Source of the DNA: Streptomyces geranii
Lineage (GTDB): Bacteria > Actinomycetota > Actinomycetes > Streptomycetales > Streptomycetaceae
Assembly (NCBI RefSeq): GCF_002954775.1
Contig: NZ_PJME01000007.1
Coordinates: 124,001-188,000, forward strand
DNA: 64,000 nucleotides
Direction: 5' to 3'
The first letter of the stretch is position 1. Each line of letters starts with the position of its first letter. Under the pieces are notes generated by a model, which did no database searches, had not been told where the DNA came from, and was given only the letters and a program-made list of their open reading frames with translations. The translations under genes and the position numbers were made by a program. Positions 11,453 through 33,654 of the stretch are shown in pieces.

Positions 11453-11458
11453 CGTCGG

Positions 11459-15485: not shown

Positions 15486-15487
15486 CC

Positions 15488-15970: not shown

Positions 15971-16013
15971 CGTTTCATTTCTCCTCGTCCCGCAAAGGAG
16001 CTACAGACCCGCC

Positions 16014-18203: not shown

Positions 18204-18410
18204 ATGCACATCAAGCAACTGCTGGAACTACTCGGATTCCTCGCCCTGGTGCAGGGCGTCGCCGGCCTGGTGCACGAGTTCACCGACGTGCATTGGGGAC
18301 TCGTGCAGCGGATCGGCTTCCTCGACGGCTACGAGCTCTACGCGAGTGTCGCCCTGGTCGTTCTGGCGATCGCGCTGTTCGCCGCCGCGGAGAGCCGGAG
18401 GTCCGGCTGA
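18204..18410 (+). CDS. Small two-helix membrane protein (copy 1)
   Basis: A 68-aa protein from ATG 18204. It has two hydrophobic helices (LLGFLALVQGVAGLVHEF and YASVALVVLAIALFAAAE) separated by the polar turn HWGLVQRIGFLDG. The function is unknown. A clearly related 66-aa copy lies at 33454-33654 on the other strand, about 80 percent identical by eye. In both places the gene converges on a guanyl RNase gene with a strong hairpin between them. The conserved pairing suggests a stable neighbourhood rather than a proven functional link. Confidence 0.8.
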   Translation: MHIKQLLELLGFLALVQGVAGLVHEFTDVHWGLVQRIGFLDGYELYASVALVVLAIALFAAAESRRSG

Positions 18411-18431
18411 ACGCGGACCGGACCTCCGGCT
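18393..18431. terminator. Bidirectional terminator between convergent genes
   Basis: A perfect 14-bp inverted repeat (AGCCGGAGGTCCGG at 18393-18406 and its complement at 18418-18431, 11-nt loop). It overlaps the 3' end of the small membrane gene and faces the RNase gene, so it can serve both strands. No T-run follows, as is common in Streptomyces. Confidence 0.75.
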
Positions 18432-18478
18432 GGTCTCACCGTTCCTCGGTCCACTACGAGGGACCGCGCCGACCGGCT

Positions 18479-18868
18479 TCAGCAGCCGTAGTTGATCAGT
18501 TTGAAGGTCACGTAGTGGTCGGCCGTGTAGTAGTCCTCCTGGGTCTTCTTACCTGTGACGATGCGGCGCGCACCGCGGGTGGAGGAACCAGGGGTCTTGA
18601 CCGTGTACTCGTGATAGTAGCCAGAGGACTGGCTGGGCAGGACGCCTTCCCGGTTTTGGAAGACGCTGCCGTCCTGCGAGTACGGGTACGGACCGCCGGC
18701 CTCGATCAGCTCCAGCGTGTCGTACGCCTGGGAGGGCAGGGCGCCGTAGCAGATGCTGCCGACCGCGGCGGCTGCGGGGGAAGCCGTGGCGACGGTTCCG
18801 CCGACGAGGAGAGCGGACAGGACGGCGGCTGCGGCGCCGATGCGAGTGATTCGTGGGGGGAATCTCAT
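18479..18868 (-). CDS. Secreted guanyl-specific ribonuclease (RNase Sa type)
   Basis: A 129-aa precursor from ATG 18868 behind GAGGG. A Sec signal peptide covers about residues 1-35 (AAAAVLSALLVGGTVATASP, cleavage near PAAAA). The mature domain matches RNase Sa closely: ICYGALPSQAYDTLELI, YPYSQDGSVFQNREGVLPSQ, then the catalytic Glu in YYHEYTV, the phosphate-binding Arg in TRGARRIVTG and the catalytic His in DHYVTF, ending in the conserved Cys. It cleaves RNA 3' of guanosine outside the cell. No barstar-like inhibitor gene is adjacent. A broken second copy lies at 33192-33332. The gene may have arrived with the island. Confidence 0.92.
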   Translation of the reverse strand: MRFPPRITRIGAAAAVLSALLVGGTVATASPAAAAVGSICYGALPSQAYDTLELIEAGGPYPYSQDGSVFQNREGVLPSQSSGYYHEYTVKTPGSSTRGARRIVTGKKTQEDYYTADHYVTFKLINYGC

Positions 18869-18946
18869 GCCCTCATGATGACGCGCGTAGACAGTGGCAT
18901 GTCAATGACAACTCCGGAGATTTTCCCGTCAAGTCCGATGAGTTTT

Positions 18947-18971
18947 CGCGGAGTTAACTTGCGACTCCGCG
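18947..18971. promoter_or_regulatory. Inverted repeat in the RNase/Avs divergent intergenic region
   Basis: Perfect 8-bp arms CGCGGAGT (18947-18954) and ACTCCGCG (18964-18971) with a 9-nt spacer, about 80 bp upstream of the RNase start and 230 bp upstream of the Avs-like gene. It could be an operator or an mRNA hairpin; the spacing does not decide. The rest of 18869-19201 holds no gene. Confidence 0.4.
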
Positions 18972-19201
18972 TCACCATCTCAGCCCCACATGCTGGTGTG
19001 CCCCCTGGTGACTCGAGCCTGGAGCTGCTCGTTCTCCAGGCCAGCGACGGTGCAGACACCCCGGGGGCGGCGTGGGTTCGTTCAGCGGGTGCTGAGTGCT
19101 CTCGGGTGAGGCCTCGCTGATCTCGTGCGCGCTCGGCTGTGCGAAAGGGATGGTGCCCAGGCCATACTGAGAGCCTGTCGCAGTATGAGCAGGGAGTTCT
19201 G

Positions 19202-22200
19202 TTGCAGCCGAGCAGGGGTGAGGTAGCGGCCGTCGTGGGTTTCGGCGGCCAATACGGTCTGGCTGCTCGTGTGGTACTTGCCAAACTCCCGACGTTGGAG
19301 TGGATCCGGGTTGCGGATCCAGAAGCCGGCGTGGCTGATGATTTCCAGTTCAAGTCGGGGCCGCGACGCCACGCATTGCAGGTGAAGTGGTCGCAGCCTG
19401 CCGGGTCGTTCACATGGAGTGACCTGACGAGCGGAGAGGGCGAAAAGCCTGGTTTGCTGACACAGCTTGCGGCCGCATGGATGCGGTTGCGGACGTCCGC
19501 TCCGGAGCCTCTGTCCGTCCACCTGTGCACGAACAATCACGCGTCGAGCGCGCAAGCGAGGGGTGCGGGCCCCATTGCTCGCGCCAGGGCCACCGGCACT
19601 CGCAGTCTGGCCACATTTCTGGCGCGCTCTTTTGAGCCAGTACGGCTGGAGATCGCGCAAGGAACGGTGCGGTGGAGCGATCTGGCCGAGCTTCCGGAAG
19701 TTGTCGACTGGGCGCCGGTCTGGGAGGCGCTACGCACGCTCACGAAGCTGAGCGATGGCGATTTCGTAGCCTTCGTGGGTGACCTGGAACTGAGGTTCGG
19801 TCTCCTGCTCGGAGATCCTCTCCTCCGTCCTGATCACGAACCGACTGACGGTGAGGTTGCACACCTGGCGCACACTCTTCAGGAGATCGTGCGGGACCCG
19901 GCACAGCCCGTGGAGTTGAGTCGTGACCAGCTGATGGAGCGCCTGGGCTGGCAGGACCGGTTGCGGTTCCGCCATCCCCACCAGTTCCCGGTCCCGACGG
20001 TGTACACGACGAACGAGGTGGCCCGCCAGGCTCTGGAGGGCCGGCTGCAGCGTCTGTCGGGCGGATACCTGGCACTGGTCGGCCCAGCCGGCTCCGGCAA
20101 GTCAACACTGCTGGCCAGCCTGAAGATGCAAGGATATGTGGCGCGTTACTACGCCTTCGTGCCCGACGCACCCGACCCTCTCAGTAGCAGGGGAGAAGCC
20201 GATAGTTTCCTGCACGACGTCTCTCTCGCTCTGCAGGAAAGCGGTCTGTATCGACACGGAATCGGCAACGATCTGCGTACCCAGCGCTTCGTGCTGGGCG
20301 ACCAGCTCGATCAGGCGGGTCAACGATGGGCGACACGCGGCGAACGGACCATCATCGTCGTGGACGGCCTCGATCACATCCCGCGGGAGCAGAACCCGAC
20401 GCGTTCTCTGCTGGAAGAACTCCCCAACCCAGCGGCATTGCCCGATGGCGTCTTCATCATCCTCGGCACCCAGACCACAAGCATTCTCCCGCCGCCGGTG
20501 CAGGCTGCCTTGGAGGAAGAGGACCGCATCGCGATCCTGCCTCCGCTGTCCGCCGAGGAAATCGAGTACCTCACCAAGGCAGCTGGCCATGGAGACTGGT
20601 TGTATCCCGGTCAGATGACCAAGGTCGTCGACGCCAGTGAAGGGCACCCCCTCGCCCTCACCTACCTTTTGCAGGAACTCGGCGCGCTGGAAGCCGGCGA
20701 ACCCGACGAAGTAGCGCGACGTCAGCTGGCGGACAATCTGCTCGCTGACGCATCGCGCTACGGCGGCGATGTCGCCGCGCGATACCGCGGCTACTTCCAA
20801 GCCATGCGAGAAGACCGGCAAGTTCTCGACCTGCTGGGCATGGTCGCGCGCCTGCGCGTACCGGTGAACCTGCGCTGGCTATCGACCTGGGCCGACCAGC
20901 ATGCAATTTCCGCGTTCGCCGATCAAGCTGCAACGTTCTTCCACAAGGCCGGTGATGACTGGCGCTTCATCCACAACAGCTTCCGACGCTATCTCGCAGA
21001 CGCCACGGCTCACGTCGTCGGCATGGCTGAGGAGGAGCGTGAACGCGGGCTCCATATGCAACTTGCCGACGTGTGCGCGAACTCCGGGGCCGAGTGGAGC
21101 CTGTATCAAGACGAAGCAGTCGTACACCTTTTTCTTGGCGGTCAGCACGACCGCGTACTGGCTCTTGCCACGCCGCGAAGGCTGCGGCAGTCTCTGATCG
21201 ATCTGCGGCCCCTGGCCACGGTCCGAGATCACGCGCTGCTTGCGCTGCGCTCCGCTAACCTGCTGGACGATTCGCAGGCCTTTCTGCGCATGCTGGTGTT
21301 CCTCAGAGAACTTCGGCTGCGCGAGATGGTCCTGGAGAACGAGCCTCTTGCGGTCGCGGTACATGCCTTCGACTCACGGCTGGCTCTGGACCACATTGCC
21401 CGGGGCGGACGACTGCGGATCACGCGGAAGGCGGCTCTTGCCCATGCCGTGACCTTTGTCAACAGCGGCAACGTGGATGCGGTACAGAGAATCCTGGGTG
21501 CCTGCGGTGGCCTGGCCGGAATCGCCAGCGAAGAAGATCCGTCGCCGGACGCGGTTGCCGATTGGGCCGAAGTGACATGGAACCTCTCCGGTCTCGACGC
21601 GGTACTGGTCGAACTCGACCACCAACTTCCCCATCCTCCAGACGACGAGAATGAGTCGGCACTCAGCACCGAAGTACCAGAAGGGCCGGCAGATGACGAG
21701 GCAGCGAGGTCCTCGCGGCGAACGCTGCTCCGAGAGCAGCGGGACCGGCTGGAACGCGAGGCGAGCACGATCAGCTGTCGTAGCTTCGTTCATGCACGTT
21801 GCCTCGATCTCCTCATCGAGACCCGTGACGAGGCGGCCCTCGACGCCTTGACGGCCGTGATCGATGCCGAGGCCACGCCCAGTTGGCGCGCCCGAGCCCG
21901 CTACATGCGGGCCCAGGCCGCATCAGAAGACCGAGCGCGAACCGAGCTTCTGCGATGGGCGCGCGAAATCATCGCCATCAACGCGCAAGAAGGGGACGCG
22001 GACGAGGAGGACGATGAGGAGCTGCCGGCCAACGGCTCGGCCCCTGCTGTACACCTGAGCATCCGGATCGCCACCGCCGAACTGCTCGTCCAGAACGGCT
22101 TCAACAGCGCGCCCGAAATCGATGAACTCGTGCCCCCCGGCACCGCCGTTGCCTGGCCATCCACCGTATCCGGGCAAGAAGGCCTCGCCCCCTTCCGGAC

Positions 22201-25200
22201 GCTGATCGGGCTCAACAGACTCCGGCACGTCCATCCGGATCCGACACAGTCGGACCCCATGCCGACCTCAGACTGGACATCGCGGGAGGCCGGCAACGAG
22301 CGTTTCCGGCGAGCACTGCGCGTCCTGGCCCAGATGGAGGGACAGCGACTTGCTGCCTCCGCCGGTCTCGGAGACCCGCCCGATGTACCAGCACAGGCGG
22401 ATCCGATCATCCGCCTGCTCGAAGTACCATCCGAGGAAACCCGTGACTGGACAGGCTGGTACATCGTTCGCGACGCTGCTCTTGAGCTCTTCGGCAGGTT
22501 AGTTGACCTCGCGGCCAAACAGCACGGCAGCGCCGGACTGCAACGCCTGGTGTCGCGGTTTGACACAGCCTGGGCGAGCGAAGAACGGACCGTCTACTGG
22601 GCCCCCGAGCGCAAGCAGGCCGTCATCGAGGCTGCTCTCAAAACTCACTCCGACGCCCATTCATGGGCCGTGGACCAGCTTCAACGGCTCGATGCGGTGA
22701 TCAACGACTGGTCCTCCGAACCGCACGGCAGGGTGTCACTGCGGCTGGCGCAAGCGCGAGCCTGGGCGCTCGCTGGCGACGAGCAGGCAGCCCGGCAAGC
22801 GACTCGCTGCGCGGTAGACACGTCGCTCGGCATCGACGCGAGCGATCATGACCGGCAACTCGTGGAGTGGCTCGACTGGCTGGTCACCGCTGCAGATGAG
22901 GGAGACATGTCCCCTTCTCAGTTCACCACGACGGTCCTCACCTACGCTTCGCGTATCTCCGCCGCTGACGCAGGCCGTCATGCCTCAAGCGCCGCGGAAA
23001 AGGTCATCGCTTCGGCCTTTGCCCGTGATCCCTCTCTAGCCTGTGGCTTGGCTGAGTGGCTGTGCACAACGGGAGCGCTCAGCGAAACGGACGCTGTCCA
23101 GGCCGTGGTGCTGGCCGCTTGCCAGCACCCAGACATTTCTGTGGCGGACAGCACCGCTGTCGCGGTCCATCTGCTGTTCCCGATCACGCTCGAGCCGACT
23201 GAGGAAATCGCCAAAACCGTACTGGCCCGCAGGACGGAGAGCTTTGCCGCCGACGCTGTGACGGTGCTGGAGCGAGCCCAGCAACTCTGGACCGTCAGGG
23301 AATTGAACCGGGACGTCACCGAACAGACAATCCACGAAGAGGCCATCGAAGAGACGCCTACGGATATTCGAGATGCTCCACCGGGCATCCAGACCCTGGG
23401 CAGCCTGCTCACGGCACTTCGAACTGCGGCAACAGTTGCAGAACCTCCGCCGGAAGGCTGGGACCAGGCCGTCGAGCAGGCAACCGCCACCATCACCTCC
23501 ACGACTCCGGCCCAGGCCCGTGCTCTGCTGGAGCAAGCCGGGCGCTTGCGCCTCTCAGGATCAGCACTGGGCAGACTGGCAGCGCTGGCTGCACAATCCG
23601 GCGAACCCGTCAGGGCCGCGGCCGCCCTCAAGGACGCGCTCAGCCGTACCCCGGCCTATGGATGGATGCGCTACCACGACGGGGGAACCAGGCTGGCCAT
23701 CCTCCACGCCGCACTCCGCTTTCGGCACCCCACCCTCGTGCGACTCGCCCGACAAGACCTCGCCAACGCCTTCATCACCGGGTCGTTGTCCGCGCAGCTG
23801 TCGCCTGACGACATCCGAGAAATCACCCAACTGGTCACAGAACCAGGAACCGTCGCCCGAGCCTGGCCCGACATCGAGGCCTACCTCGATGAGGTAGCAC
23901 CCCCTGCCACCGAGAGCACGGACATCCCTGCACTTCCAGCAGCAGCGGTCCCGGCGGTGGAGGCGCTGGCACGATGGGTTGCGCTGTATCTCGGCCACCC
24001 CGTCCGCTCTCTCGACTTCGGCGCACGACGGGCACTTCAGTTGCTGAGCACCCGCCACCAGCCCGTGATCCAGACCCTTCTCGCCGACACCATCACACAA
24101 GGCGGATGGGCGTGCGAGGCCGCCCTGCTCACCCTGATCACCACACCCGAAGGCGAACGGGCAACCGATGTGTCCGCTGAACTCGTCGTCGCCCTGCAGG
24201 TCGCTGCGACCGAGACCGACGGCATCTCCCGAGACCTCGCTCGCCGTTTCGCCCGTCTGTACGATATTGAGCTGGAGAAGCCGCCGCGCCGAGCCCGCCC
24301 TGCCGCGTATGGCCTGACGCTTCCACCTCTTCCCGAACGCACGGTCCCGGAAGAGGACCGGCACGGGACCCCGCACCTGGATCCGCACAATCCGCGTCAC
24401 ATGCTCGGCCCGTTCGACGTTGCCCTTCAGATGCTCTCCGGCATCTCCGGGCTGGAGGCCTCGGCGGTACTCCACCGGGCCGCCTCGGTCGCCAGGTTCA
24501 ACACGGATCGCTGGACCGAGGGAGGACATCACGCTCACGCACAACGTCTCACCTCACGTCAGCAGCGCCACAGCTATCGCCCGTGGGCGTACATGGCCGG
24601 CCGCCGAGCCCTCGGCTCCGTACTAGGTGAGCTATTTGACGCATGCGCGCTGGGCGACCCGCCGTCACTTCCTGCCTACTACTTCGGTTTCGTAGACGAG
24701 CAAATCGTCACCGTTGAGCCGCAGCCGCTCCCAGCATGGTTGCCGCCGATCTGGAGACCAGAAGGAACTTCCTCCTACGACGTCGACAACTGGTGCGCCG
24801 AAGCAGGAACAGCCGTGGATGAGTACCTTCGTTCATACGCCGAGGCCAAACCCTACGTGCTGGCCGAACATGGAGAGTGGCGCAGCCTGGAATGGGGAAG
24901 ACCTGAAGAAGCACGCGGTGTCCACACAACTCACAGCGACGTGCTCAATGCAGCCTTTTACCTCCCCGAGCGCCGAGCCTGGGAACCCTTCCACGCCGAA
25001 TTCGACCGGTACCCGGCCAGTCGCAGCCTCGACTGGGCGGACAAGGAGTTGGTCGTCCACGGCTACGAAGACTGGACGGACGCTCGGCACAGAGAATGGC
25101 TCGCGCTCCATCCGGTCGTCGGCGCCGAACTTGGATGGCACCATGACCCACGCGAACTCTTCACTTGGAGGGGAGAGGACGGCCAGTGGCGCGCACGCAC

Positions 25201-25426
25201 GGTGCTGCTGGTCCGGGGACAGCTCAGCCACCAGCCACCACGGCACGTGACCTGCACCGAAGCATGGCAGGTTCAATTGAGTGAGACGGGTTACGCCGAA
25301 CTCAGCAGCGTATTTCCGGAATTGAAGCGAACCCTGACGGTGACTCGAACATTGCCTGCCAGCAGACGGAAGGGTCGCCCCGAAGAGACGAAGACAAGTC
25401 GCAAGCAACTGGCCACAGACGCCTGA
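19202..25426 (+). CDS. Avs-like STAND NTPase with N-terminal PD-(D/E)xK nuclease
   Basis: A giant protein of about 2,074 aa. Start TTG 19202 is preferred (GGGAG just upstream); GTG 19139 would add 21 residues. The N-terminus (GEVAAVVGFGGQYGLAARVV, then DDFQFKSG and HALQVKWSQ) has the Asp46...Gln60-x-Lys62 core of Cap4/DUF4297-type dsDNA nucleases. A P-loop NTPase follows: Walker A GPAGSGKST at about 294-302, Walker B TIIVVDGLDHI near 385, and a winged-helix/arm region including FIHNSFRRYLAD. The remaining roughly 1,400 residues are helical and repeat-like, with an unassigned C-terminal domain rich in Trp and Tyr. This nuclease-STAND-sensor layout is that of AVAST (Avs) anti-phage proteins, which bind phage proteins through the C-terminal repeats and then degrade DNA. 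It stands alone, as most Avs genes do. Confidence 0.85.
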   Translation: MQPSRGEVAAVVGFGGQYGLAARVVLAKLPTLEWIRVADPEAGVADDFQFKSGPRRHALQVKWSQPAGSFTWSDLTSGEGEKPGLLTQLAAAWMRLRTSAPEPLSVHLCTNNHASSAQARGAGPIARARATGTRSLATFLARSFEPVRLEIAQGTVRWSDLAELPEVVDWAPVWEALRTLTKLSDGDFVAFVGDLELRFGLLLGDPLLRPDHEPTDGEVAHLAHTLQEIVRDPAQPVELSRDQLMERLGWQDRLRFRHPHQFPVPTVYTTNEVARQALEGRLQRLSGGYLALVGPAGSGKSTLLASLKMQGYVARYYAFVPDAPDPLSSRGEADSFLHDVSLALQESGLYRHGIGNDLRTQRFVLGDQLDQAGQRWATRGERTIIVVDGLDHIPREQNPTRSLLEELPNPAALPDGVFIILGTQTTSILPPPVQAALEEEDRIAILPPLSAEEIEYLTKAAGHGDWLYPGQMTKVVDASEGHPLALTYLLQELGALEAGEPDEVARRQLADNLLADASRYGGDVAARYRGYFQAMREDRQVLDLLGMVARLRVPVNLRWLSTWADQHAISAFADQAATFFHKAGDDWRFIHNSFRRYLADATAHVVGMAEEERERGLHMQLADVCANSGAEWSLYQDEAVVHLFLGGQHDRVLALATPRRLRQSLIDLRPLATVRDHALLALRSANLLDDSQAFLRMLVFLRELRLREMVLENEPLAVAVHAFDSRLALDHIARGGRLRITRKAALAHAVTFVNSGNVDAVQRILGACGGLAGIASEEDPSPDAVADWAEVTWNLSGLDAVLVELDHQLPHPPDDENESALSTEVPEGPADDEAARSSRRTLLREQRDRLEREASTISCRSFVHARCLDLLIETRDEAALDALTAVIDAEATPSWRARARYMRAQAASEDRARTELLRWAREIIAINAQEGDADEEDDEELPANGSAPAVHLSIRIATAELLVQNGFNSAPEIDELVPPGTAVAWPSTVSGQEGLAPFRTLIGLNRLRHVHPDPTQSDPMPTSDWTSREAGNERFRRALRVLAQMEGQRLAASAGLGDPPDVPAQADPIIRLLEVPSEETRDWTGWYIVRDAALELFGRLVDLAAKQHGSAGLQRLVSRFDTAWASEERTVYWAPERKQAVIEAALKTHSDAHSWAVDQLQRLDAVINDWSSEPHGRVSLRLAQARAWALAGDEQAARQATRCAVDTSLGIDASDHDRQLVEWLDWLVTAADEGDMSPSQFTTTVLTYASRISAADAGRHASSAAEKVIASAFARDPSLACGLAEWLCTTGALSETDAVQAVVLAACQHPDISVADSTAVAVHLLFPITLEPTEEIAKTVLARRTESFAADAVTVLERAQQLWTVRELNRDVTEQTIHEEAIEETPTDIRDAPPGIQTLGSLLTALRTAATVAEPPPEGWDQAVEQATATITSTTPAQARALLEQAGRLRLSGSALGRLAALAAQSGEPVRAAAALKDALSRTPAYGWMRYHDGGTRLAILHAALRFRHPTLVRLARQDLANAFITGSLSAQLSPDDIREITQLVTEPGTVARAWPDIEAYLDEVAPPATESTDIPALPAAAVPAVEALARWVALYLGHPVRSLDFGARRALQLLSTRHQPVIQTLLADTITQGGWACEAALLTLITTPEGERATDVSAELVVALQVAATETDGISRDLARRFARLYDIELEKPPRRARPAAYGLTLPPLPERTVPEEDRHGTPHLDPHNPRHMLGPFDVALQMLSGISGLEASAVLHRAASVARFNTDRWTEGGHHAHAQRLTSRQQRHSYRPWAYMAGRRALGSVLGELFDACALGDPPSLPAYYFGFVDEQIVTVEPQPLPAWLPPIWRPEGTSSYDVDNWCAEAGTAVDEYLRSYAEAKPYVLAEHGEWRSLEWGRPEEARGVHTTHSDVLNAAFYLPERRAWEPFHAEFDRYPASRSLDWADKELVVHGYEDWTDARHREWLALHPVVGAELGWHHDPRELFTWRGEDGQWRARTVLLVRGQLSHQPPRHVTCTEAWQVQLSETGYAELSSVFPELKRTLTVTRTLPASRRKGRPEETKTSRKQLATDA

Positions 25427-25823: not shown

Positions 25824-28316
25824 CTAGCGTTTCCGCTTCGGCTTGTTCTGCTTGAGCTTTGTATTGCTCGTCTTGCGGGGCGGTCGCATGGCGTTGGGAT
25901 GGATCGTTCGCTGCAGGTCCGAGGCTGGCCGCAACGACCTCATGGTTGCGGTCAGGGACGCGTCGAGCGGTCCGATGTGCCCGTCGTAGAAGACTTCGCG
26001 AAGATCGCCGGTCGATTCGTCGTACAAGAAGACGACGCCTCGCGGGAGATTGAGCTGGTGCTTCTTTACGCGTACGTAGTCCGTGACCCGCTGCTGGGCA
26101 GCGTCAGGGCTTTCGCCGGCAGGACGAGTGGCCCAGGCGAAGAGCCATCCTTCGGCTGGGTCGGCACTCGCCGTGATGGGGACGGTGATGCTGCGGCCTT
26201 GGCCGTTCGGCGATGGGTTGCTGACGAGCTCTGCGCCGTAGCGAGCGAACTTGTGCTGAACGGTATGGCTGCCGGACAGCAGTGTCGCCCCGATGCTCAG
26301 CCAGCCCGTGACGTTGCGCTTCTGTAGTTCATCGACGAGGGGCGCGGTTGGGGTCGCCGCCATGTGTGGTTTGAGGGCGGATGCAGGTCCGGAGCCCATC
26401 TCATGCTTCGTGTGGAACCACTGGTCAAGAGCATCGGTGCGGCTCGTCACGATTGTTGGCTGCTGCGAGCGGTAGCGGCGCAACTCGGCTGGCGACGGCG
26501 CGGGGATGAAGGGGAACGCGGTGCGCACCTGCGCCGGATCAGGCTCAACCCAAAGGCCGGCCTCGAAGAAGTGCAGGAACAGATCCAGTTCGTCCGGTGC
26601 GCTGAACATGAGGGTGACGTTCGGGTTGCGACGTCGGCGAAGGTAGAGCAGGAACTCGGCGGGGCGATCGACGAGTTCGGTGATCAGTTCAAGGTCGTGC
26701 AGTGACACAGTCCAGGGGATGTTGTCGGCGCTGAGCAAGTCGGCCCGCACCAGCTCTGCGGTGGCGGTGAGCACAGGCGAGATGTCATCGAGGCTGACTG
26801 CGATCGTGTGGATCTCGCGGATGTGACTGAGGTCTACCCACCCCTCCTCCTCGATGCGCAGGCCTCCGTCCTGCTCGATTCTGTCTCGGATCCGGCCCGC
26901 CTGCTCAGCAGCTTTCGTGACGATGCCGGTCAAGTCATTGCGGATCCGTGTCTTCTTGCCGCCGCGGGACAGTGCACTGAACGCGACGGCTTTGTCTTCG
27001 ACGACAATTGCGACGTCGTCGACAAGGACAAGATGGTCGCCCTCGACGCGCTTGGTGTACTTCGCCGGGTCAGCGTTGGCCGCCTCGGCGGCGTTCGCGG
27101 GCACGTAGTACTCGAACCCGTCCCGATAGTGGGCGCCGGGCAGCACCCGCCCCAGAGCGTCTCGGGTACGGGACTCGAGGAGGTCACCACGATGCTTCGC
27201 GTATTTGTTCCATGCCGTCGACGTCTTGAGATGCTCTTCCAGATTCTCCCGGACGGCGAACACGTGGAGCCCTGGGTGGGGCAGCATGACGCGTTCGTCG
27301 CTTCCGATGATGATCGGCCGGGTCCGCAATGGGTTCTGGCCGGCGGTGAACGCATCGACTGCCTCCGCAGGCGTTGTTCCCTTCAGATCCAGTCGGAACC
27401 GCTCGACGACCGCTTTGACCCTGTCCCGAGTGATGCCGGTATGTCTGACGACGTCTTCGACTGCGACCGTGGCCTCGTCGGCCTCAGGCTCGAACATCCT
27501 CATGAGGCTGGACCGTGCGAGGTCCATGACCCCTTCGTCGGCTCGCCCGGTCTCAGTGGACGCCATCGCTTCAGACACAGAGTCACGCATCGCGTCTATG
27601 CGATCGTTCAGGCCCACCATCTGGAGGTCATGGCACGCGTCGAGAACCGCTAGGGCGTCACACGCGTCGAAGCCGAGCTCGGCGACAAGGGCCGCCTGCA
27701 CCTCCGGGTCACCGTCCAAGAGCGCGCGGTTGGTCTCTTCGACCATCTCCGGGTAGGACGAGTTCCGCATCCATACCTCGCCCCCCTGGACGAGCAATGA
27801 CACCAGAGCGAGCTTGTCGGTCGCATCCGCAGCGGCGAAAGAGCGCAGCTGAGCCAAGTGGAGAAGCTTGGCGATCTCCTCCCGCGCCGTCGATACGAAG
27901 TGGCTCATCTCCTGCTCTGCGACCGGGGCCCGGGGGGAGGCTGTGACATCTGCCGCCTCTTGTGGAGGCACGAGAGCGGTCAACGCTAGTAGTTCGAGTG
28001 GCGCGGCACTGGATTCCGCGGTGACCGGCATCATTCCTGCGGGGACCAATGGCAAGAACGCCAGACGCGCCACCTCGATGAGCCGGATCGGGTCGAAGTG
28101 CCGAACCTTCGAAGCAAACTCGGCGACTGCTTCGTCGAATGCTTCACCGACAGCTACCGCAGGGTCGTCGCTCGCGTCGAACTTCCCCATGAGCGCCATC
28201 AGCGAGGCCCAGGAGTCAATGATCACCTTCGCGTGCGGGTCGAACACCGGTGACACCGCACCAGCGTGACGCTTCCGCTTCTTGCGTGCCTCATGACGCT
28301 TCGTTCGAGAACCCAC
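25824..28316 (-). CDS. Unknown protein with PD-(D/E)xK-like nuclease core
   Basis: An 830-aa protein from GTG 28316. The N-terminus and C-terminus are strongly basic (KRHEARKKRKRHAG and KLKQNKPKRKR). The N-terminal half is helical. Around residues 370-440 it reads GDLLESRTRDALGRVLPG, then FEYYVP, then EGDHLVLVDDVAIVVEDKAV. This Glu...Asp...Glu-x-Lys spacing fits a PD-(D/E)xK nuclease core. The C-terminal third contains YLRRRRNPNVTLMFSAPDEL and WLFAWATRP without a recognised fold. The name and target are unknown. It sits downstream of the partition genes on the same strand, 200 bp from the small RHH gene, and could be a plasmid-borne defence or maintenance nuclease. Confidence 0.8.
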   Translation of the reverse strand: MGSRTKRHEARKKRKRHAGAVSPVFDPHAKVIIDSWASLMALMGKFDASDDPAVAVGEAFDEAVAEFASKVRHFDPIRLIEVARLAFLPLVPAGMMPVTAESSAAPLELLALTALVPPQEAADVTASPRAPVAEQEMSHFVSTAREEIAKLLHLAQLRSFAAADATDKLALVSLLVQGGEVWMRNSSYPEMVEETNRALLDGDPEVQAALVAELGFDACDALAVLDACHDLQMVGLNDRIDAMRDSVSEAMASTETGRADEGVMDLARSSLMRMFEPEADEATVAVEDVVRHTGITRDRVKAVVERFRLDLKGTTPAEAVDAFTAGQNPLRTRPIIIGSDERVMLPHPGLHVFAVRENLEEHLKTSTAWNKYAKHRGDLLESRTRDALGRVLPGAHYRDGFEYYVPANAAEAANADPAKYTKRVEGDHLVLVDDVAIVVEDKAVAFSALSRGGKKTRIRNDLTGIVTKAAEQAGRIRDRIEQDGGLRIEEEGWVDLSHIREIHTIAVSLDDISPVLTATAELVRADLLSADNIPWTVSLHDLELITELVDRPAEFLLYLRRRRNPNVTLMFSAPDELDLFLHFFEAGLWVEPDPAQVRTAFPFIPAPSPAELRRYRSQQPTIVTSRTDALDQWFHTKHEMGSGPASALKPHMAATPTAPLVDELQKRNVTGWLSIGATLLSGSHTVQHKFARYGAELVSNPSPNGQGRSITVPITASADPAEGWLFAWATRPAGESPDAAQQRVTDYVRVKKHQLNLPRGVVFLYDESTGDLREVFYDGHIGPLDASLTATMRSLRPASDLQRTIHPNAMRPPRKTSNTKLKQNKPKRKR

Positions 28317-28522
28317 GATGCAACCTCACCACACATCGAGGATGACGGGCCAACCGTTTCTGACGCTGGTGGAAGGGCTCGTAGTCGCGGATGCTCGGAA
28401 ACGGAGTGACGAACAATCGCGGATCGTGCCTTGTCGTGCTCGCCGTCGATCCGCGACTTCTGGCCCCAAGCGGCGAGACACCGGGGCGAAACCCAATTGA
28501 CCAGCTGGGCGGGGAGGGCTGC

Positions 28523-28834
28523 TCATGGAGCCTGCGGCTTGAGCGGGGTGAGGTCGGGTGGGTAGCCCTTGGCGCGGAGCCAGATGTCGAGTGCGGTGGC
28601 GACGATGTCGCCGTGGGGTGTGCCGTGATCGGCGTTGTAGCGGCGGATGCGTCGTTGGAGCTGGAGGACGTCCGGCACCGCGTAGTTGAGCTGTCCGCGA
28701 TTGATGTGGCGGTTGGCGATGACCGCAAGGGTGTCGGGATGTGGGGTGAGGGGATCGGCGGCGGGTTGGGACTGGGCTTCGAGCGCGTCGGCCATGTCAC
28801 GAAGCCGTCGGGCATGGTGGGAGAGGTCGGGCAC
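28523..28834 (-). CDS. Small paralogue of ParB-like DNA-binding domain
   Basis: A 103-aa protein from GTG 28834 with GGAGGAG about 7 nt upstream. The C-terminal 60 residues (NRHINRGQLNYAVPDVLQLQ, RRIRRYNADHGTP, HGDIVATALDIWLRAKGYPP) align with the C-terminus of the ParB-like protein just upstream (RIITRESLDSSIPAELRLKR, GDIVSVALDEWLTARGF). The pattern is that of a ribbon-helix-helix-like dimeric DNA-binding domain. It is likely a second centromere-binding protein or a regulator of the par operon. The relationship is seen directly; the function is inferred. Confidence 0.7.
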   Translation of the reverse strand: MPDLSHHARRLRDMADALEAQSQPAADPLTPHPDTLAVIANRHINRGQLNYAVPDVLQLQRRIRRYNADHGTPHGDIVATALDIWLRAKGYPPDLTPLKPQAP

Positions 28835-28961
28835 TCAGGCTCCTCCAGCCGGTTTGACTAGGCGGCTAGTTAGTCGCCTATTGGGCTATTGAAATAGTCG
28901 GCGGAAGGGGCGGCCGAGTAACTCAGCCAGCTGGCGGCCGCCCCTTGCGCACTGTGGCGTG

Positions 28962-29825
28962 TCAGAAGCCGCGGGCGGTGAGCCACTCGTCCAGCGCGAC
29001 CGAGACGATGTCACCGATGGGCAGGTGATCGAGTTCGTTGTCCAGCGCGAAGCGCTTGAGCCGCCTCTTCAGCCTCAACTCCGCGGGGATCGACGAGTCG
29101 AGACTCTCGCGCGTGATGATGCGCTGGTTGAGTACGACGGCTGTCTCGGGGATGTCCTTGGGCCGGCCGGGTCCCTGAGCCCACGGGGTTCCCTCGCTGG
29201 GTGCCGCCTCCGATCGCGTGTTCTGCTCCTGGTGAGACCCCGGAACATCGCTCCTCGCCGGGAAAGCCATACCGCCCGGGACCGGAGAAACGGCTGGCCG
29301 GACGGCAACCTCGGCGGTCGGGGACACCCGAGCGGTCGTAGAGGTGGCCTGGGGCAGACCCACCTGCGGAACCTGCTCGATCGGTTGCGTGGACTGAACT
29401 ATAGGTATCGCGGGCTCGGCATCGGGAGCCACGAACTGCTCCTGGGACTGGGATGAATTCCCAGAGGGAACCGGCTGCCCCACGGCATCTACTGCGGCCA
29501 GCTGGACGGCCGGATCCTGGACAGGGCCACTCGCTGCGACGTCGACGGCCGGCGGCACGTGGGGTGGTGGGCCCTCCGAGAGCGTCCCGCTTGGGTCGTC
29601 CTGCTCCGCAGTCTCCACGGGGGCAGTGGAAGCGCGCTGGGCTTCGGACTTGTCGGCGGCGAGGCGGCCTTCGCCCAGGGCTGCGGTCTGTTCGGCGGCG
29701 AATTGCTCAGGTGTGAGCTCGGCGGCCGGCGGAGGGGGCGGTGGGGTGGTCTTCTTGGCCCCGCCCAGGGCACGCCCGCCCGCGCGGCGAGCCGGCGGCT
29801 TCAGCCGCTCGTTCTTCTCGCTCAT
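28962..29825 (-). CDS. ParB-like centromere-binding partition protein
   Basis: A 287-aa protein from ATG 29825. Residues 1-35 are basic and proline-rich, the middle 180 residues are low-complexity (Pro, Ala, Glu, Gln), and the last 55 residues form a folded RHH-like DNA-binding domain ending in VALDEWLTARGF. There is no classical ParB HTH. The start codon overlaps the ParA stop by 4 nt (ATGA), so the two are translationally coupled, as in type Ib partition loci where ParA is followed by a small RHH protein. It probably binds a nearby centromere and stimulates ParA. Confidence 0.75.
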   Translation of the reverse strand: MSEKNERLKPPARRAGGRALGGAKKTTPPPPPPAAELTPEQFAAEQTAALGEGRLAADKSEAQRASTAPVETAEQDDPSGTLSEGPPPHVPPAVDVAASGPVQDPAVQLAAVDAVGQPVPSGNSSQSQEQFVAPDAEPAIPIVQSTQPIEQVPQVGLPQATSTTARVSPTAEVAVRPAVSPVPGGMAFPARSDVPGSHQEQNTRSEAAPSEGTPWAQGPGRPKDIPETAVVLNQRIITRESLDSSIPAELRLKRRLKRFALDNELDHLPIGDIVSVALDEWLTARGF

Positions 29826-30538
29826 GCCTGGGTCAGCTCCTTCATCAGGTTGGCGTACTCGCTCAGTTCGGTGGGGATCTCGCCGAAGGCCTCCATGTAG
29901 TGGACCCAGGAGTGGATGGTGGTGTCGGCGAGCGGGAACGCCTCGTCGCGGTCCGGGCCGATGCCCTCGCCCTCGGCGGGGGCGAGGAGCTGGTCCTTCG
30001 CGCGACCGGGCAGGCTGGTGCGGTCGTCGGCCTTGACCATGACGACGTGGGCGGTGACGCCGTGTTCGTTGCGGGCGGCGGCGCGCTCGGCCTCGTCGAA
30101 GGTGGCCACGAGCTTGCGGCGCTCGATCTTGGTGGGGGCGACCGGTACGAGCAGCAGGTTTGCCTCGGTGACAGCCTCGTGGAAGATGCGGGCGCTGCCG
30201 CCGCCGGCGTCGACCACGATCGCGCCGAACTCGGCGCGCTTGGCCCGGATGTACTCGGCGATGTCGTCGAACGGGTACCGCTCGACAATCAGGTTCTCGG
30301 GCATCTCGAAGCCGGCGGCCTGGGCGACCTTGAACCAGTCGTAGGCGGACTGGCTGGTGGCGTCCGCGTCCAGCAGCAGGGTGGGCAGGTTGAGGACGAC
30401 GGCGTAGTAGAGGGCGATGAACCAGGCGGAGGTGGTCTTGCCGGTGCCGCCCTTGAGCATGCCGACCACGATGACGAAGGCGTCCCAGGCGCTGGCCGCA
30501 GCAGCGGCCAGGGTCTTGGTACGGGTGTTCTCACTCAC
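29822..30538 (-). CDS. parA: ParA-family partition ATPase
   Basis: A 238-aa Walker-type ATPase from GTG 30538. The deviant Walker A MLKGGTGKTTSAWF has the signature lysine, then LPTLLLDADATSQSAYDW and AIVVDAGGGSARIFHEAV (Walker B region), followed by LLVPVAPTKIERRKLVATFD. No N-terminal HTH is present, as in short (type Ib) ParA proteins. It is coupled to the ParB-like gene. Such pairs keep low-copy plasmids or integrative elements in the cell line, which is a strong sign that this part of the window was, or is, a plasmid. Confidence 0.9.
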   Translation of the reverse strand: MSENTRTKTLAAAAASAWDAFVIVVGMLKGGTGKTTSAWFIALYYAVVLNLPTLLLDADATSQSAYDWFKVAQAAGFEMPENLIVERYPFDDIAEYIRAKRAEFGAIVVDAGGGSARIFHEAVTEANLLLVPVAPTKIERRKLVATFDEAERAAARNEHGVTAHVVMVKADDRTSLPGRAKDQLLAPAEGEGIGPDRDEAFPLADTTIHSWVHYMEAFGEIPTELSEYANLMKELTQA

Positions 30539-30715
30539 GTGTGCTTGATCTCCTGAATCGGGAAAGGTGCGTTGGCTTACGGGCGTCGAAGGCCGCCGCC
30601 CGGTGTCGGTTGTCTGCCAGCGATGGAGGGGCCCGTGCTGCAGTGCCGTGTTCGGGTTTACGCACCGTCAGCCGCTTGATCTGCCGGGCCCGGCCGAGGA
30701 CGCCTGCCGGGGCTC

Positions 30716-31300
30716 TCATGACCGCTTCCGCGGGGTGCGAGCGGGGCCGTGATTGTGCTTGGGCCGCATCCGGGTGCCCGCTTGGTGCAGAAGCCGGTAG
30801 ACGGTGCCGACGGAGTAACTGCACTCCTCGGCCAGGTCCGGCACGGTGGCGCCGGCCTCGTACCGCGCGCGGAGGGAGAGCGCGAGCTTGTTTCGCCGTG
30901 CGGCGTTGGCTGCGGAGCGGATGTGGAGTGTCTGCTGGGTGGTGCGGGGCGTGCCCCCGGCCTCGATCAGCAGCCGCCGGGCGGCACGTCGCGTCACGGA
31001 CCCTGCCACGGCCAACTCCGCGAGCGTGGCGCCCTGTTGCTCGTAGAGGCGGCGCAGACGAGCCGCGAGATTGCGGCGGGCTTGCCCGTCGCGCATTCTG
31101 CGCGTCTGCCACGAGGTGCGCATCACGGTGTCGGCCTCGCGCAGACGGTTGAGAACCGTGCCGTACGACAGGCCGCTCGCGGCGACGAGTTCGGTGACCG
31201 TGGTGCCTGACTCGTACTGCTCACGCAGGCCTTGAGGGGTGACCGATGTGCTCTCGGCATCGGCAGGTGGAGGTTGTGGGTTCACGCGGCGGAGTTCCAT
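30716..31300 (-). CDS. Triple helix-turn-helix protein
   Basis: A 194-aa basic protein from ATG 31300 made of three related HTH units of about 55 residues: QYESGTTVTELVAASGLSYG, then YEQQGATLAELAVAGSVTR, then YEAGATVPDLAEECSYSVGT. Each is followed by a recognition-helix-like stretch with Arg-Leu and an (A)G-T-x-R end. The tail is Arg/Lys-rich. Its start overlaps the end of the Rep-like gene by 19 nt, so the two are co-transcribed. It probably binds repeated DNA sites, for example in the origin region, or controls copy number. The repeats are seen directly; the role is inferred. Confidence 0.75.
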   Translation of the reverse strand: MELRRVNPQPPPADAESTSVTPQGLREQYESGTTVTELVAASGLSYGTVLNRLREADTVMRTSWQTRRMRDGQARRNLAARLRRLYEQQGATLAELAVAGSVTRRAARRLLIEAGGTPRTTQQTLHIRSAANAARRNKLALSLRARYEAGATVPDLAEECSYSVGTVYRLLHQAGTRMRPKHNHGPARTPRKRS

Positions 31301-32820
31301 TCCCTGAGGGCTTCGGCGTGGGCAGCGGCCAGCTCGTCGTAACTGCGCTGGTCGGCAGGGGTGATGAGGATCAGTCGCCCGTCAGTAGCCAGACGCCAGT
31401 CGGCGGCGGGCCGACCGGTGACCGGGTCGAGGACGCTCCCGCCCGGGGTCTCCCACACGGACGGGACCTCATCGGGTCGCGGTGCCGGGACCAGGACCTG
31501 GCGCCCGTCGCGGACAATCACCGTGGCTTTGCTGCGATGTTCCGCGCGCCGGTCCAGCACCTCCCGGTACGTCGCCCGCTCGACCGCGTGCAGAGCCCTG
31601 CGCCGGGCCGCAACGCCCGCCGTGCCGTAGCACTGGGCGATGCCGTCCCAGCCCAGTGCCGGCCGTGTGCCCGGTGCCGTGGCGGCATCCAGAGGACTGT
31701 CGCCGAAGCCCTCCACAGCGCGGGGAGCGAGGGCCCAGGTCTCACCGTGGCGCCGCACGAGACCGTGGTCGGCCAGACGCCGCAAGGTCCGGTAGGCAGT
31801 GGCCCGGGATACGGAGGCGGTACCGACAAGATCGCTGACCGTCTGAGCGGGCCGGACGTGCAGCGCCCCGATGATCATGAGGGCGGAGCTGCCGAGGCCG
31901 CGGTGGGCGAAGGCGTCGTGGCCCATCAGGCGGGCGATGACGGTGGAGTCGATGTCGGCCGTCGTGGCCGTCTCAGGGGTGGTCCACTCCTCAAGTGCCA
32001 GGTCGGGGGGGTACTGAGTGGTCCAGAAACGAGACAGCGAATCGCAGCCACGACGGCTCCCGGTGCTGCCGTGGTCGAGGTACCAGGTGGAGCCCTCCCG
32101 GCCGTGACCGGCCCGCAGCCGACGCAGCCAGCCCCCAGGCTTGAGGACGGTCTCGTAGACCACGCGCAGCGTCGTCCGCGAGATCCCTGCTTCCTCCGCG
32201 GTCTGCCGCTCGCTGGCGTGGTGCAGCGGGCCACCGGCGGTCTCGGCGAAGTTCAGATGGGCCCGCAGCACCCGTAGCGCGGTCCGTCCCCGCTCGCCGC
32301 GCCAGGGCGTGGTCTCGATGCGGTCCCGCAGTGCGGCGAGAACCTCGTAGGCGTGGTGACGTGAGTCCAGCACTCGGGTTCCGGCGACCACGGCTGTCGC
32401 GCTGGCCCACACCCGGCGGATGTAGTCCAGGGCGCGTGCCTGCCCTGAGCGCAGGGCGATGTGCCGGGCGTGCCGGCCACCCTCGTGGTCGGGGTGCAGC
32501 AGCAGCTGGGTCAGCTCGTCGATGGTGCCGCCGGCGCGAGCGACGTGGCAGGCGATGGCCGCTGTGACGCGGTGTCCGTGCTCGGCCGCGCCCTTCCGAT
32601 CCTGGCGTACGGCCACGGTGCGGCCGTCGGAGCCGAGTCTGCTGTAACTGCCTGTCGCGTACCGGCCGGTGAGATCCCCGAGCAGGACCAGTTCGGCCGC
32701 AGCCAGACGAAGGTGGTGAAGGCCCAGTCGGCCGAACGAGTGAGGGATCTGCCGCTGTGGTTCTGCCTGATGACTGTGGTGTGCCACGGTGAGGTCGTCT
32801 CGCAAGGACAAGGGCGCCAC
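31282..32820 (-). CDS. Putative plasmid replication/regulatory protein with winged helices
   Basis: A 512-aa protein from GTG 32820, with several internal starts possible. The N-terminal part (LTGRYATGSYSRLGSDGRTV) is unassigned. Around residue 210 an HTH reads ASERQTAEEAGISRTTLRVV. Near 305-365 there is a good MarR/GntR-like winged helix (MIIGALHVRPAQTVSDLVG, VSRATAYRTLRRLADHGLV). The C-terminus has PSVWETPGGSVLDPVTG and no known catalytic motif. Its place at the head of a rep-HTH-parA-parB order, with short repeats and a hairpin directly upstream, suggests a replication initiator or its regulator. The family was not recognised. Confidence 0.6.
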   Translation of the reverse strand: MAPLSLRDDLTVAHHSHQAEPQRQIPHSFGRLGLHHLRLAAAELVLLGDLTGRYATGSYSRLGSDGRTVAVRQDRKGAAEHGHRVTAAIACHVARAGGTIDELTQLLLHPDHEGGRHARHIALRSGQARALDYIRRVWASATAVVAGTRVLDSRHHAYEVLAALRDRIETTPWRGERGRTALRVLRAHLNFAETAGGPLHHASERQTAEEAGISRTTLRVVYETVLKPGGWLRRLRAGHGREGSTWYLDHGSTGSRRGCDSLSRFWTTQYPPDLALEEWTTPETATTADIDSTVIARLMGHDAFAHRGLGSSALMIIGALHVRPAQTVSDLVGTASVSRATAYRTLRRLADHGLVRRHGETWALAPRAVEGFGDSPLDAATAPGTRPALGWDGIAQCYGTAGVAARRRALHAVERATYREVLDRRAEHRSKATVIVRDGRQVLVPAPRPDEVPSVWETPGGSVLDPVTGRPAADWRLATDGRLILITPADQRSYDELAAAHAEALREWNSAA

Positions 32821-32877
32821 CCAGGCCCGCTAAAACCACGGGTGGTACCCGGAACCGACCTCCGATCGGTGCCAGCG

Positions 32878-32907
32878 ATGCCTCCAGGATTGCCGTCCTG
32901 GAGGCAT
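32878..32907. promoter_or_regulatory. Perfect hairpin upstream of Rep-like gene
   Basis: Arms ATGCCTCCAGGA (32878-32889) and TCCTGGAGGCAT (32896-32907) are perfectly complementary, with a 6-nt loop. It lies 58 bp upstream of the GTG at 32820. A partial echo (ATGCCTGG ... GGAGGCAG) follows at about 32911-32937. It could be an operator, an antisense-RNA hairpin or part of the replication origin. Confidence 0.6.
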
Positions 32908-33035
32908 TCGTATGCCTGGCCCCGCTCTGGAGGCAGGCGTCCCCATCGCAACTCGACCAGGGCTAGATCGGCGAAGCAGCGAGGTCGCCGCTCCTGATCA
33001 ACGCCAGTCAACTCGGGTCCCTCAGCGGCAAGTTG

Positions 33036-33127
33036 CAGAGGGATCGCCTCTGACTGCCTCTGAGCGACCCAGGTCGAACCGGGGTCGAATCAGAGCGTTT
33101 CCTCTGACTGCCTCCGATCGCCTCTGC
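33036..33127. repeat. Iteron-like short repeats, candidate plasmid origin
   Basis: The 14-mer CCTCTGACTGCCTC occurs at 33047-33060 and 33101-33114. GATCGCCTCTG also occurs twice (about 33042 and 33116). Inverted pairs CAGAGG/CCTCTG (33036-33041/33047-33052) and TCAGAG/CTCTGA (33090-33095/33102-33107) are interleaved. The whole stretch between 32840 and 33191 has no gene. Clustered short repeats upstream of a Rep-like gene are what an iteron origin or a par centromere looks like, but the number of repeats is small. Confidence 0.45.
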
Positions 33128-33191
33128 AACCCGTCCTAGCAGGTCACAGCCGCTTCGGCCTCCATAAGTCCAGGTCAGAGGGGTGCGGTCG

Positions 33192-33332
33192 GATTACCAC
33201 GAGTACACGGTCAAGACCCCCGGTTCCTCGACGCGCGGTGCCCGTCGCATCGTCACCGGTGAGGAGTACCAGGAGGACTACTACACGTCCGACCACTACG
33301 CGACGTTCGACCTGATCGACTACGGCTGCTGA
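33192..33332 (+). pseudogene. 3' fragment of a second guanyl RNase gene, marks island boundary
   Basis: Only the last 45 codons of an RNase Sa-type gene remain: DYHEYTVKTPGSSTRGARRI through SDHYATFDLIDYGC and a TGA at 33330-33332. The match to the intact gene at 18479-18868 begins abruptly near 33194. Upstream in frame there is non-homologous sequence and a stop at 33165. The signal peptide and the first half of the mature enzyme are gone, so the fragment is dead. The nucleotide match to the other copy is around 84 percent by eye, too low for a recent duplication. The break is best read as the junction where the accessory segment entered or recombined. Confidence 0.9.
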
Positions 33333-33397
33333 CACCGCCGCCGACACCTTCGCGCGCGCCACTCCCGGCGCCGCGTCCGAGTGAACAGCGCGACCCG

Positions 33398-33469
33398 CCG
33401 GAAGTCCGGGTCCCGGCCGAACCCCACGTCGGCCCGACCGGACCCCACTTCGGTCACCCGGACTTCCGG
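33398..33469. terminator. Long-loop inverted repeat between RNase fragment and membrane gene
   Basis: Arms CCGGAAGTCCGGGT (33398-33411) and ACCCGGACTTCCGG (33456-33469) pair perfectly over 14 bp around a 44-nt loop. The right arm covers the 3' end of the small membrane gene. It occupies the same place as the terminator at 18393-18431, with a different sequence but the same layout. Confidence 0.65.
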
Positions 33470-33654
33470 CTCTCCGCGGCGGCGAACAGCGCGAACGACA
33501 GTACGAGCAGTGCCGCGCTCGCGTAGATCTCGTGGCCGTCGAGGAAGCCGAGCCGCTGTACGAGGCCCCAGTGCAGGTCGGTGAACTCGTGCAGCAGGCC
33601 CGCGACGCCCTGCACCAGGGCGATGAAACCGATGATCTCCAGCAACTGCTTCAT
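33454..33654 (-). CDS. Small two-helix membrane protein (copy 2)
   Basis: A 66-aa protein from ATG 33654 behind GAGG. It has two hydrophobic helices (IIGFIALVQGVAGLLHEF and YASAALLVLSFALFAAAE) around HWGLVQRLGFLDG. It is the homologue of the gene at 18204-18410, differing mostly by conservative changes (Ile/Leu/Val swaps, Arg/Lys near the end). It converges on the RNase fragment exactly as its homologue converges on the intact RNase. It is probably the native chromosomal copy, since everything to the right looks like ordinary chromosome. The function is unknown. Confidence 0.8.
   Translation of the reverse strand: MKQLLEIIGFIALVQGVAGLLHEFTDLHWGLVQRLGFLDGHEIYASAALLVLSFALFAAAESRKSG

What the first reader, a model, noticed from the sequence alone, without database searches (positions are those of the whole stretch)
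18204..33654. Inverted, diverged RNase/membrane-protein pairs bracket about 14 kb of the island
At 18.2-18.9 kb a small membrane gene converges on an intact guanyl RNase. At 33.2-33.65 kb the same pair occurs inverted, with the RNase cut to 45 codons. Divergence (about 80 percent protein, about 84 percent DNA by eye) is like that between orthologues of different species. A plausible story is that a plasmid carrying a foreign copy of this locus recombined with, or inserted into, the resident RNase gene and supplied an intact enzyme.
Basis: partly seen in the sequence, partly recalled or inferred. Interest (0 to 1): 0.65.

Follow-up and report, generated by a model that had tools for sequence, protein, structure and literature searches.

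The report
Mobile element carrying its target's spare
A 49 kb mobile DNA element has landed in the middle of a bacterial ribonuclease gene and carries a complete, slightly different copy of that same gene, whose landing site reads differently without changing the protein, so it looks like an element that brings a spare for the gene it breaks.

Summary
The missing front half of the truncated right-hand RNase lies 49 kb to its left, outside the window. An integrative element has split the resident gene at codons 85-88, around the catalytic glutamate. Both junctions share the 10-bp core TACCACGAGT. The intact RNase/membrane pair at 18.2-18.9 kb is internal cargo: complete, inverted, diverged.

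This recurs. The junction occurs in 3 of 392 genomes of the genus; all three have a split resident RNase and an intact one, internal and inverted in two, beside the left junction in the third. A sibling element with the same right end splits citrate synthase and carries a complete inverted copy (1 of 2 such insertions). In G000, G073 and the citrate synthase case the spare differs from the landing core only synonymously (TATCACGAGT; TCGCCAATA for CCGCCAGTA). The TAT form occurs in 9 of 392 genomes, all in inverted or element-borne copies; all 19 ordinary copies read have TAC.

I read it as a site-specific element that breaks a gene and brings a spare. That the recoding protects the spare is untested: a founder effect is possible, 9 inverted copies keep TAC, and one citrate synthase insertion has no spare. 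The plasmid/homologous recombination story is not supported.

The parts
18479..18868 (-). intact carried guanyl RNase (129 aa, RNase Sa family), the spare copy
   Evidence: best solved relatives RNase Sa3 1mgr and RNase Sa
18607..18616 (-). recoded core in the spare: TATCACGAGT (codon 85 TAT instead of TAC, synonymous)
18204..18410 (+). small membrane protein gene travelling with the spare, 3' end facing the RNase (membrane nature read from the sequence)
   Evidence: no Pfam family
18869..19075 (-). upstream region of the spare; among the loci compared, the part beyond about 130 bp matches only G073 cargo, the inner G087 fragment, G022 and G252
33195..33332 (+). 3' fragment of the resident RNase gene (codons 85-129); the 5' fragment lies outside the window at G000:C6:107942-108214
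33195..33204 (+). attR core TACCACGAGT, identical to the core at the left junction (L002:1759-1768)
33454..33654 (-). resident membrane protein gene
32821..33194 (+). conserved right arm of the element family (380-bp query matched in 34 of 295 genomes)
31282..32820 (-). 512-aa winged-helix protein conserved with the right arm; replication-protein-like by context only (inferred)
30716..31300 (-). 194-aa helix-turn-helix protein (HTH_58)
29822..30538 (-). ParA-like partition ATPase
28523..29825 (-). two small conserved genes of the right-end module (103 and 287 aa)
   Evidence: module 28.5-33.2 kb shared with sibling elements
12203..13471 (-). tyrosine recombinase (422 aa), the likely integrase
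   Evidence: a homologue (57% identical over 416 aa) ends 230 bp from the left junction of a sibling insertion in G119, and a C-terminal fragment sits next to the left junction in G087
14244..17969 (+). cargo: Lamassu-type / ABC-three-component defence genes (LmuA, middle component MC3, LmuB)
19139..25426 (+). cargo: 2095-aa NACHT/AAA protein, Avs1b-like
7577..11452 (-). cargo: 1291-aa caspase-helicase protein, Mokosh-like helicase part

Best explanation
Shown: a 49 kb element sits inside the resident RNase Sa-type gene at codons 85-88, with the same 10-bp core at both junctions, and carries a complete, diverged, inverted copy of that gene and its neighbour. The same site is occupied in two other genomes, both with an intact RNase as well (inside and inverted in G073; beside the left junction in G087). 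Inferred: a tyrosine recombinase of the type at window 12203-13471 joins the element's att site to TACCACGAGT in the RNase gene. This kills the resident gene, and the carried copy, with its own conserved upstream region, takes over. Inferred with less confidence: the synonymous TAC-to-TAT change in the core of the carried copy hinders the integrase from attacking the spare. Over time the resident halves and the element decay and the inverted spare is left as the gene at the locus.
For: Split gene and shared core. Exact junction in 3 of 392 genomes, all with a split resident and an intact copy. No genome appears twice among the close matches listed (the listing was cut). Conserved right end next to different targets in 20 loci compared: 3 RNase, 2 citrate synthase, 5 Rieske-type oxygenase, 7 rnpB-like (recalled name), 3 others (Pfam supports the citrate synthase and Rieske names on one gene each). 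Integrase: a homologue of the window's recombinase ends 230 bp from the left junction in G119, and a fragment lies beside it in G087. Decay series: G022 has a resident front half without its start codon, cut near codon 62 and fused to the left arm, with an intact spare; G236 has a right-arm remnant fused to resident downstream DNA; G252 has element-type DNA between its inverted RNase and the right flank. Replacement: inverted G244 and ordinary G357 are sisters on the right-flank tree (100/99) but not on the RNase tree. Second target: the G316 element splits citrate synthase (5' part 654633-654743, 3' part 769838-770881) and holds a complete inverted copy at 673664-674824. Recoding.
Against: In G087 the intact copy now lies outside the stretch between the two resident fragments, and it is inside only if a later inversion is assumed; its core reads TAC. 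The window's integrase is 28 kb from the left junction, and no Pfam integrase match lies in the G073 element. G119 has the same citrate synthase break and no complete spare of that type, and its 3' part is not restored at the border. The two G119 junctions differ by one base within the shared stretch (TACCGTCAGTA and TACCGCCAGTA), so the core need not match perfectly, or has mutated since; this weakens the protection step. 9 of 15 inverted loci carry TAC, and some are of the same lineage as their ordinary sister (G207/G092, G086/G286), so inversion also arises without a recoded copy. The TAT copies may share one founder. The carried citrate synthase is rich in A/T-ending codons throughout (71 of 388). 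RNase is not essential: 71 of 392 genomes gave no match at E 1e-8.
Confidence: 0.65

Rival explanations
1. Passive hitchhiking: the element picked up an RNase locus from an earlier host (which had an inverted, TAT-type gene) and the copy has no selected role for the element.
For: The carried copy comes with its membrane gene and upstream DNA, and inverted loci are common (15 of the 38 full copies compared). TAT may be one founder haplotype (TCT GGC TAC TAT in 7 of the 8 TAT copies printed). One of two citrate synthase insertions has no spare.
Against: All three genomes with this junction have an intact copy in or beside the element, the sibling stretches read at other targets have no RNase (only G316 was read whole), and a sibling at another gene carries that other gene instead.
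Confidence: 0.24
2. Repair after the fact: the element split the gene first and an intact RNase was acquired later because cells with it were fitter.
For: G000 and G073 cargo fall in different parts of the RNase tree, are not among each other's eight nearest in the C part, and G073 cargo lacks an intact membrane gene. In G087 the intact copy is beside the left junction.
Against: G000 cargo, G073 cargo and the inner G087 fragment share an upstream extension not matched in the ordinary loci compared, and G000 and G073 cargo are 93% identical in the N part.
Confidence: 0.16
3. One reading: a plasmid with a foreign RNase locus recombined homologously with the resident gene.
For: ParA and a large DNA-binding protein look plasmid-like, and distant relatives of the 512-aa protein lie on 18 plasmids.
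Against: Both junctions at the same codon with element DNA, the intact copy internal and inverted, same junction in three genomes.
Confidence: 0.04
4. TAT is a host resistance allele: hosts with a silent change at the landing site escape insertion, and such alleles later enter elements or spread by recombination.
For: The change lies inside the core and is synonymous; other Tyr codons in the same genes are 359 TAC to 3 TAT.
Against: None of the 19 ordinary, uninterrupted genes read has TAT; all 9 TAT copies are inverted or element-borne.
Confidence: 0.12

Closest known systems
Genomic islands and ICEs that restore their target gene (tRNA/tmRNA islands)
   Same: Site-specific insertion that splits a gene, with element DNA making good the loss (Islander, PMC4383910; start of the abstract in a search listing, and two passages).
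   Different: There the att site itself carries the missing end, so the gene is rebuilt at the border. Here the border copy stays broken and a complete separate copy lies about 14 kb inside, inverted.
The element's own sibling in a Rieske-type oxygenase gene (G064; also host contig C12)
   Same: Same right arm and module.
   Different: Inserted near codon 13; in G064 a full gene lies in the same orientation further left, as in border restoration; its left junction was not checked.
Engineered home-and-rescue / cleave-and-rescue gene drives (recalled, not read)
   Same: An element that breaks a gene and carries a recoded copy of it that resists the same attack.
   Different: Natural, bacterial, based on integrase attachment rather than nuclease cutting; no drive is claimed. 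One search for such wording in bacteria gave nothing relevant among the 10 papers listed.
Guanyl-specific RNase Sa / Sa3 (Streptomyces)
   Same: Carried and resident enzymes belong here.
   Different: No difference of note; the novelty is in the element, not the enzyme.

Membership tests
Site-specific integrative element with a tyrosine recombinase | target split with a shared core at both ends | tested here: met
   TACCACGAGT at both junctions in G000; the same in G073 and G087
Site-specific integrative element with a tyrosine recombinase | integrase gene inside, near one att site | tested here: inconclusive
   inside but 28 kb from attL in G000; fragment next to attL in G087; no Pfam match in the G073 element; 230 bp from the left junction in the citrate synthase sibling of G119
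Site-specific integrative element with a tyrosine recombinase | excision and circular form | not testable with these tools
   needs DNA from the strain
Actinobacterial ICE (pSAM2/SLP1 type) | FtsK-like transfer protein and replication initiator of known type (recalled features) | not tested
   only selected ORFs were scanned; the only transfer-type matches were weak VirC1 hits of the ParA protein
Target restoration by att fusion | target gene complete across one junction | tested here: not met
   both junction fragments are truncated; the intact copy is internal
RNase Sa family (PF00545) | family profile and catalytic glutamate | tested here: met
   Pfam E 1.1e-25; Glu87 corresponds to position 54 of RNase Sa by the offset of the match 37-129 to 4-96 (role of Glu54 recalled)
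Break-and-rescue element (proposed kind) | complete carried copy of the split target | tested here: met
   RNase: internal in 2 of 3 insertions, beside the junction in the third; citrate synthase: 1 of 2
Break-and-rescue element (proposed kind) | carried copy cannot be used as target | not testable with these tools
   sequence differs in the core in G000, G073 and G316, activity unknown

The most novel reading that the evidence does not exclude
A family of bacterial integrative elements has independently evolved, for at least two target genes, a recoded spare: a complete inverted copy of the gene it splits, with synonymous changes in the integrase core, which rescues the host, protects itself from the integrase and finally replaces the resident gene. 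It would be a natural counterpart of home-and-rescue designs.
Probability: 0.36. Interest if true: 0.86.

Novelty: new variant of a known kind. Interest (0 to 1): 0.72.

Why it matters
Elements that land in protein genes usually choose a gene end, restore it at the border, or accept the damage (recalled). An element that carries a full, silently altered copy would explain how mid-gene sites at a catalytic codon can be tolerated, how genes are swapped between species at a fixed locus, and why this RNase is inverted in many species.

Tried and rejected
Homologous recombination (Campbell) model: rejected on the junctions. Chance similarity of the pair: rejected by length and identity. Single old inversion of the RNase in one clade: rejected, the orientation label needs about 10 changes on the right-flank tree. 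All inverted loci as decayed insertions: not shown; the 9 that keep TAC gave no arm or module match in the search. Serine integrase: suspected early from the short core; PF07508 was planned and not searched. Rfam search for the rnpB-like 29-mer in 16 loci gave nothing at gathering threshold, so the rnpB label is recalled. Spare copies for the targets in G011, G299 and host contig C12: none found by blastn in the stretches fetched, which may not span those elements; tblastx gave only low-identity matches in the part of the output shown, which was cut. RNase on plasmids: 16 records, none covering 80% of the query. Relatives of the 512-aa protein in phages: none. The listings of seven literature searches (three of them empty) show no title or abstract start describing an element that carries an intact recoded copy of its split target; only two passages of one paper were opened, and the library lacks most subscription journals.

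Full report
THE OBSERVATION. The window is G000:C6:124001-188000. The two pairs are the longest inverted repeats of the 14-38 kb region: 283 nt at 83% and 143 nt at 87%. The left RNase is intact, the right one starts at codon 85. The left one belongs to the RNase Sa family, and the right one aligns with it.

THE REAL UNIT. A search of the host genome gives three RNase pieces on one contig: the intact left copy, the 3' fragment at window 33.2 kb, and a 5' fragment (codons 1-89) at C6:107942-108214, plus strand, 49 kb to the left of the 3' fragment. The 5' fragment ends GGCTACTACCACGAGT and then runs into unrelated DNA; the 3' fragment begins TACCACGAGTACACGG. The shared core is TACCACGAGT, which codes Tyr-His-Glu plus one base. 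Glu87 corresponds to Glu54 of RNase Sa by the alignment offset; that Glu54 is the catalytic base is recalled. So an element of about 49 kb split the resident gene in the middle of its active-site codons, and the pair at 18.2-18.9 kb is cargo inside it. In ordinary related loci the gene is whole, followed by the membrane gene and the same right flank.

THE ELEMENT FAMILY. The right 4.7 kb (28.5-33.2 kb: two small genes, ParA, an HTH protein, a 512-aa winged-helix protein and a 380-bp arm) is shared with elements elsewhere; G073 shares only about the last 2.5 kb and G087 the last 1.9 kb. The 380-bp end matches in 34 of 295 genomes of the genus. In the 20 loci compared, the DNA after the end falls into classes: RNase gene 3, citrate synthase 2, Rieske-type oxygenase 5, an rnpB-3'-like sequence 7, others 3. 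The citrate synthase and Rieske names rest on translated flanks and on Pfam for one full gene each; the rnpB label is recalled. A tyrosine recombinase is inside the host's element, 28 kb from the left junction. A homologue, 57% identical over 416 aa, ends 230 bp from the left junction of the citrate synthase insertion in G119; a C-terminal fragment lies beside the left junction in G087, and another full homologue lies in the G316 element. No Pfam integrase match lies in the G073 element. The cargo includes Lamassu-type, Avs1b-like and Mokosh-like defence genes.

RECURRENCE. The exact right junction occurs in 3 of 392 genomes: G000, G073 and G087. All three have a split resident gene and an intact RNase. 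In G073 the order is as in G000, with the cargo inverted about 12 kb from the right junction. In G087 the intact copy is in forward orientation beside the left flank, and the 5' fragment is inverted 1.5 kb away, so as it stands the intact copy lies outside the stretch between the two fragments. Over the 258 nt they share the two are identical, and the inverted fragment has the upstream extension of cargo copies. This is what recombination between inverted copies would leave, with the gene restored at its own place; that is inferred, and without it G087 shows only that an intact copy is next to the element.

DECAY AND REPLACEMENT. G022 keeps a resident front half without its start codon, cut near codon 62 and fused to left-arm sequence, and an intact cargo-type copy next to right-flank DNA. 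G236 keeps a right-arm remnant fused to resident downstream DNA. In G252 DNA that in the host's element lies beyond the cargo's upstream side separates the inverted RNase from the right flank. Among the loci compared, 15 RNases are inverted relative to the right flank (my tally). Distances between the left flank and the RNase, read off, are larger in inverted loci (13 used) than in ordinary ones (28 used), one-sided p = 0.0004 (an earlier run with 12 and 24 gave 0.0006). Loci with the two on different contigs (G022, G086, G266, G276, G032) and G000, G073, G087, G133, G149 and G267 are not in it. On the tree of the right flank the orientation needs 10 changes (13 inverted and 19 ordinary rows). 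G073 cargo groups with inverted G022 (99/94) and with G244 and G252 (95/89), while its resident half lies elsewhere. Inverted G244 is sister to ordinary G357 by flank (100/99) but not by RNase. Other inverted loci do not fit replacement: G207 and G086 group with their ordinary sisters G092 and G286 in both trees. Support in the RNase tree is limited (17 of 38 inner branches open, bootstrap not settled).

RECODING. In 38 full copies read at the core, all 19 ordinary ones read TAC TAC CAC GAG TAC. The G000 and G073 cargo and 6 of 15 inverted copies read TAC TAT CAC GAG TAC; the other 9 inverted copies, G149 and the intact G087 copy read TAC at that codon. A pattern search finds the TAT form in 9 of 392 genomes; the ninth, G267, has its RNase 5' end facing reversed right-flank genes, so I count it as inverted. 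Other Tyr codons in the 55 of 57 distinct copies that have the motif are 359 TAC to 3 TAT. TAT in 9 of 18 inverted or cargo copies against 0 of 21 forward copies gives Fisher p = 0.0002; without G267, which was found by its TAT, 8 of 17 against 0 of 21 gives p = 0.0005. The copies are related, so this is no test of independent events, and one founder could explain the pattern.

A SECOND TARGET. In G316 the same right end splits a citrate synthase gene: codons 7-43 at C53:654633-654743, codons 38-385 at 769838-770881, both plus strand. A complete copy lies inside, inverted, at 673664-674824, 0.8 kb from the integrase homologue. It is 79% identical in DNA to the resident 3' part. The junction core is CCGCCAGTA; the carried copy reads TCGCCAATA, two synonymous changes. 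This gene is rich in A/T-ending codons overall (71 of 388), and the core region is one of several clusters (7 of 12 codons, p = 0.002 for a window chosen after the fact), so recoding is suggestive here, not proven. In G119 the same gene is split by a sibling about 163 kb long; no complete copy of this type was found in the genome, the 3' part is not rebuilt at the border, and the two junctions differ by one base in the shared stretch, which speaks against a strict need for identity or reflects later change. The five sibling stretches searched for RNase gave none (G064, G291, G316, G119, G022 C147; the rest of the G316 element also none); apart from G316 they may not span the whole elements.

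VERDICT. Site-specific insertion is close to certain. That the intact copy is a functional spare carried by the element is likely (inside the element in 2 of 3 RNase insertions and beside it in the third, plus an unrelated gene in 1 of 2). That the silent core change protects it is a good but untested idea. Nothing like it turned up in the search listings seen, but that library is partial.

Noticed in passing
G000:C12:157469-159358 (L089, L170): The host has a second element of the same family, inserted at the Rieske-type oxygenase site.
   Followed up: partly
window 7577-25426: A cluster of defence genes: Mokosh-like caspase-helicase, Lamassu-type three-gene system, Avs1b-like 2095-aa protein, with the spare RNase pair between the last two.
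   Followed up: partly
G000:C6:108408-108436, G073:C1:8338347, G316:C53:676987: A 29-nt sequence resembling the 3' end of rnpB (recalled) lies about 200 bp inside the left junction in G000 and G073 and just after the integrase in G316; similar sequence follows the right end in 7 of the 20 loci.
   Followed up: partly
L117-L129 (G165, G121, G343, G341, G207, G244, G220, G020, G177, G016, G236, G086): The RNase is inverted relative to the right flank in many species, often with a hairpin-like and degenerate membrane-gene remnant downstream; nine of the 15 inverted loci keep the TAC core and their origin is unclear.
   Followed up: partly
G133:C1:2421000-2425500 (L134): The RNase is gone from the locus while the membrane gene and both flanks remain; a copy lies elsewhere at 944198.
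   Followed up: no
L033:2749-17947: Very long ORFs in the left part of the island, one with glycosyl hydrolase family 1 and a weak GDSL-lipase match.
   Followed up: no
window 5237-5704: A transposase fragment (DDE_Tnp_1, E 1.2e-05), hinting that the left part of the island is composite.
   Followed up: partly
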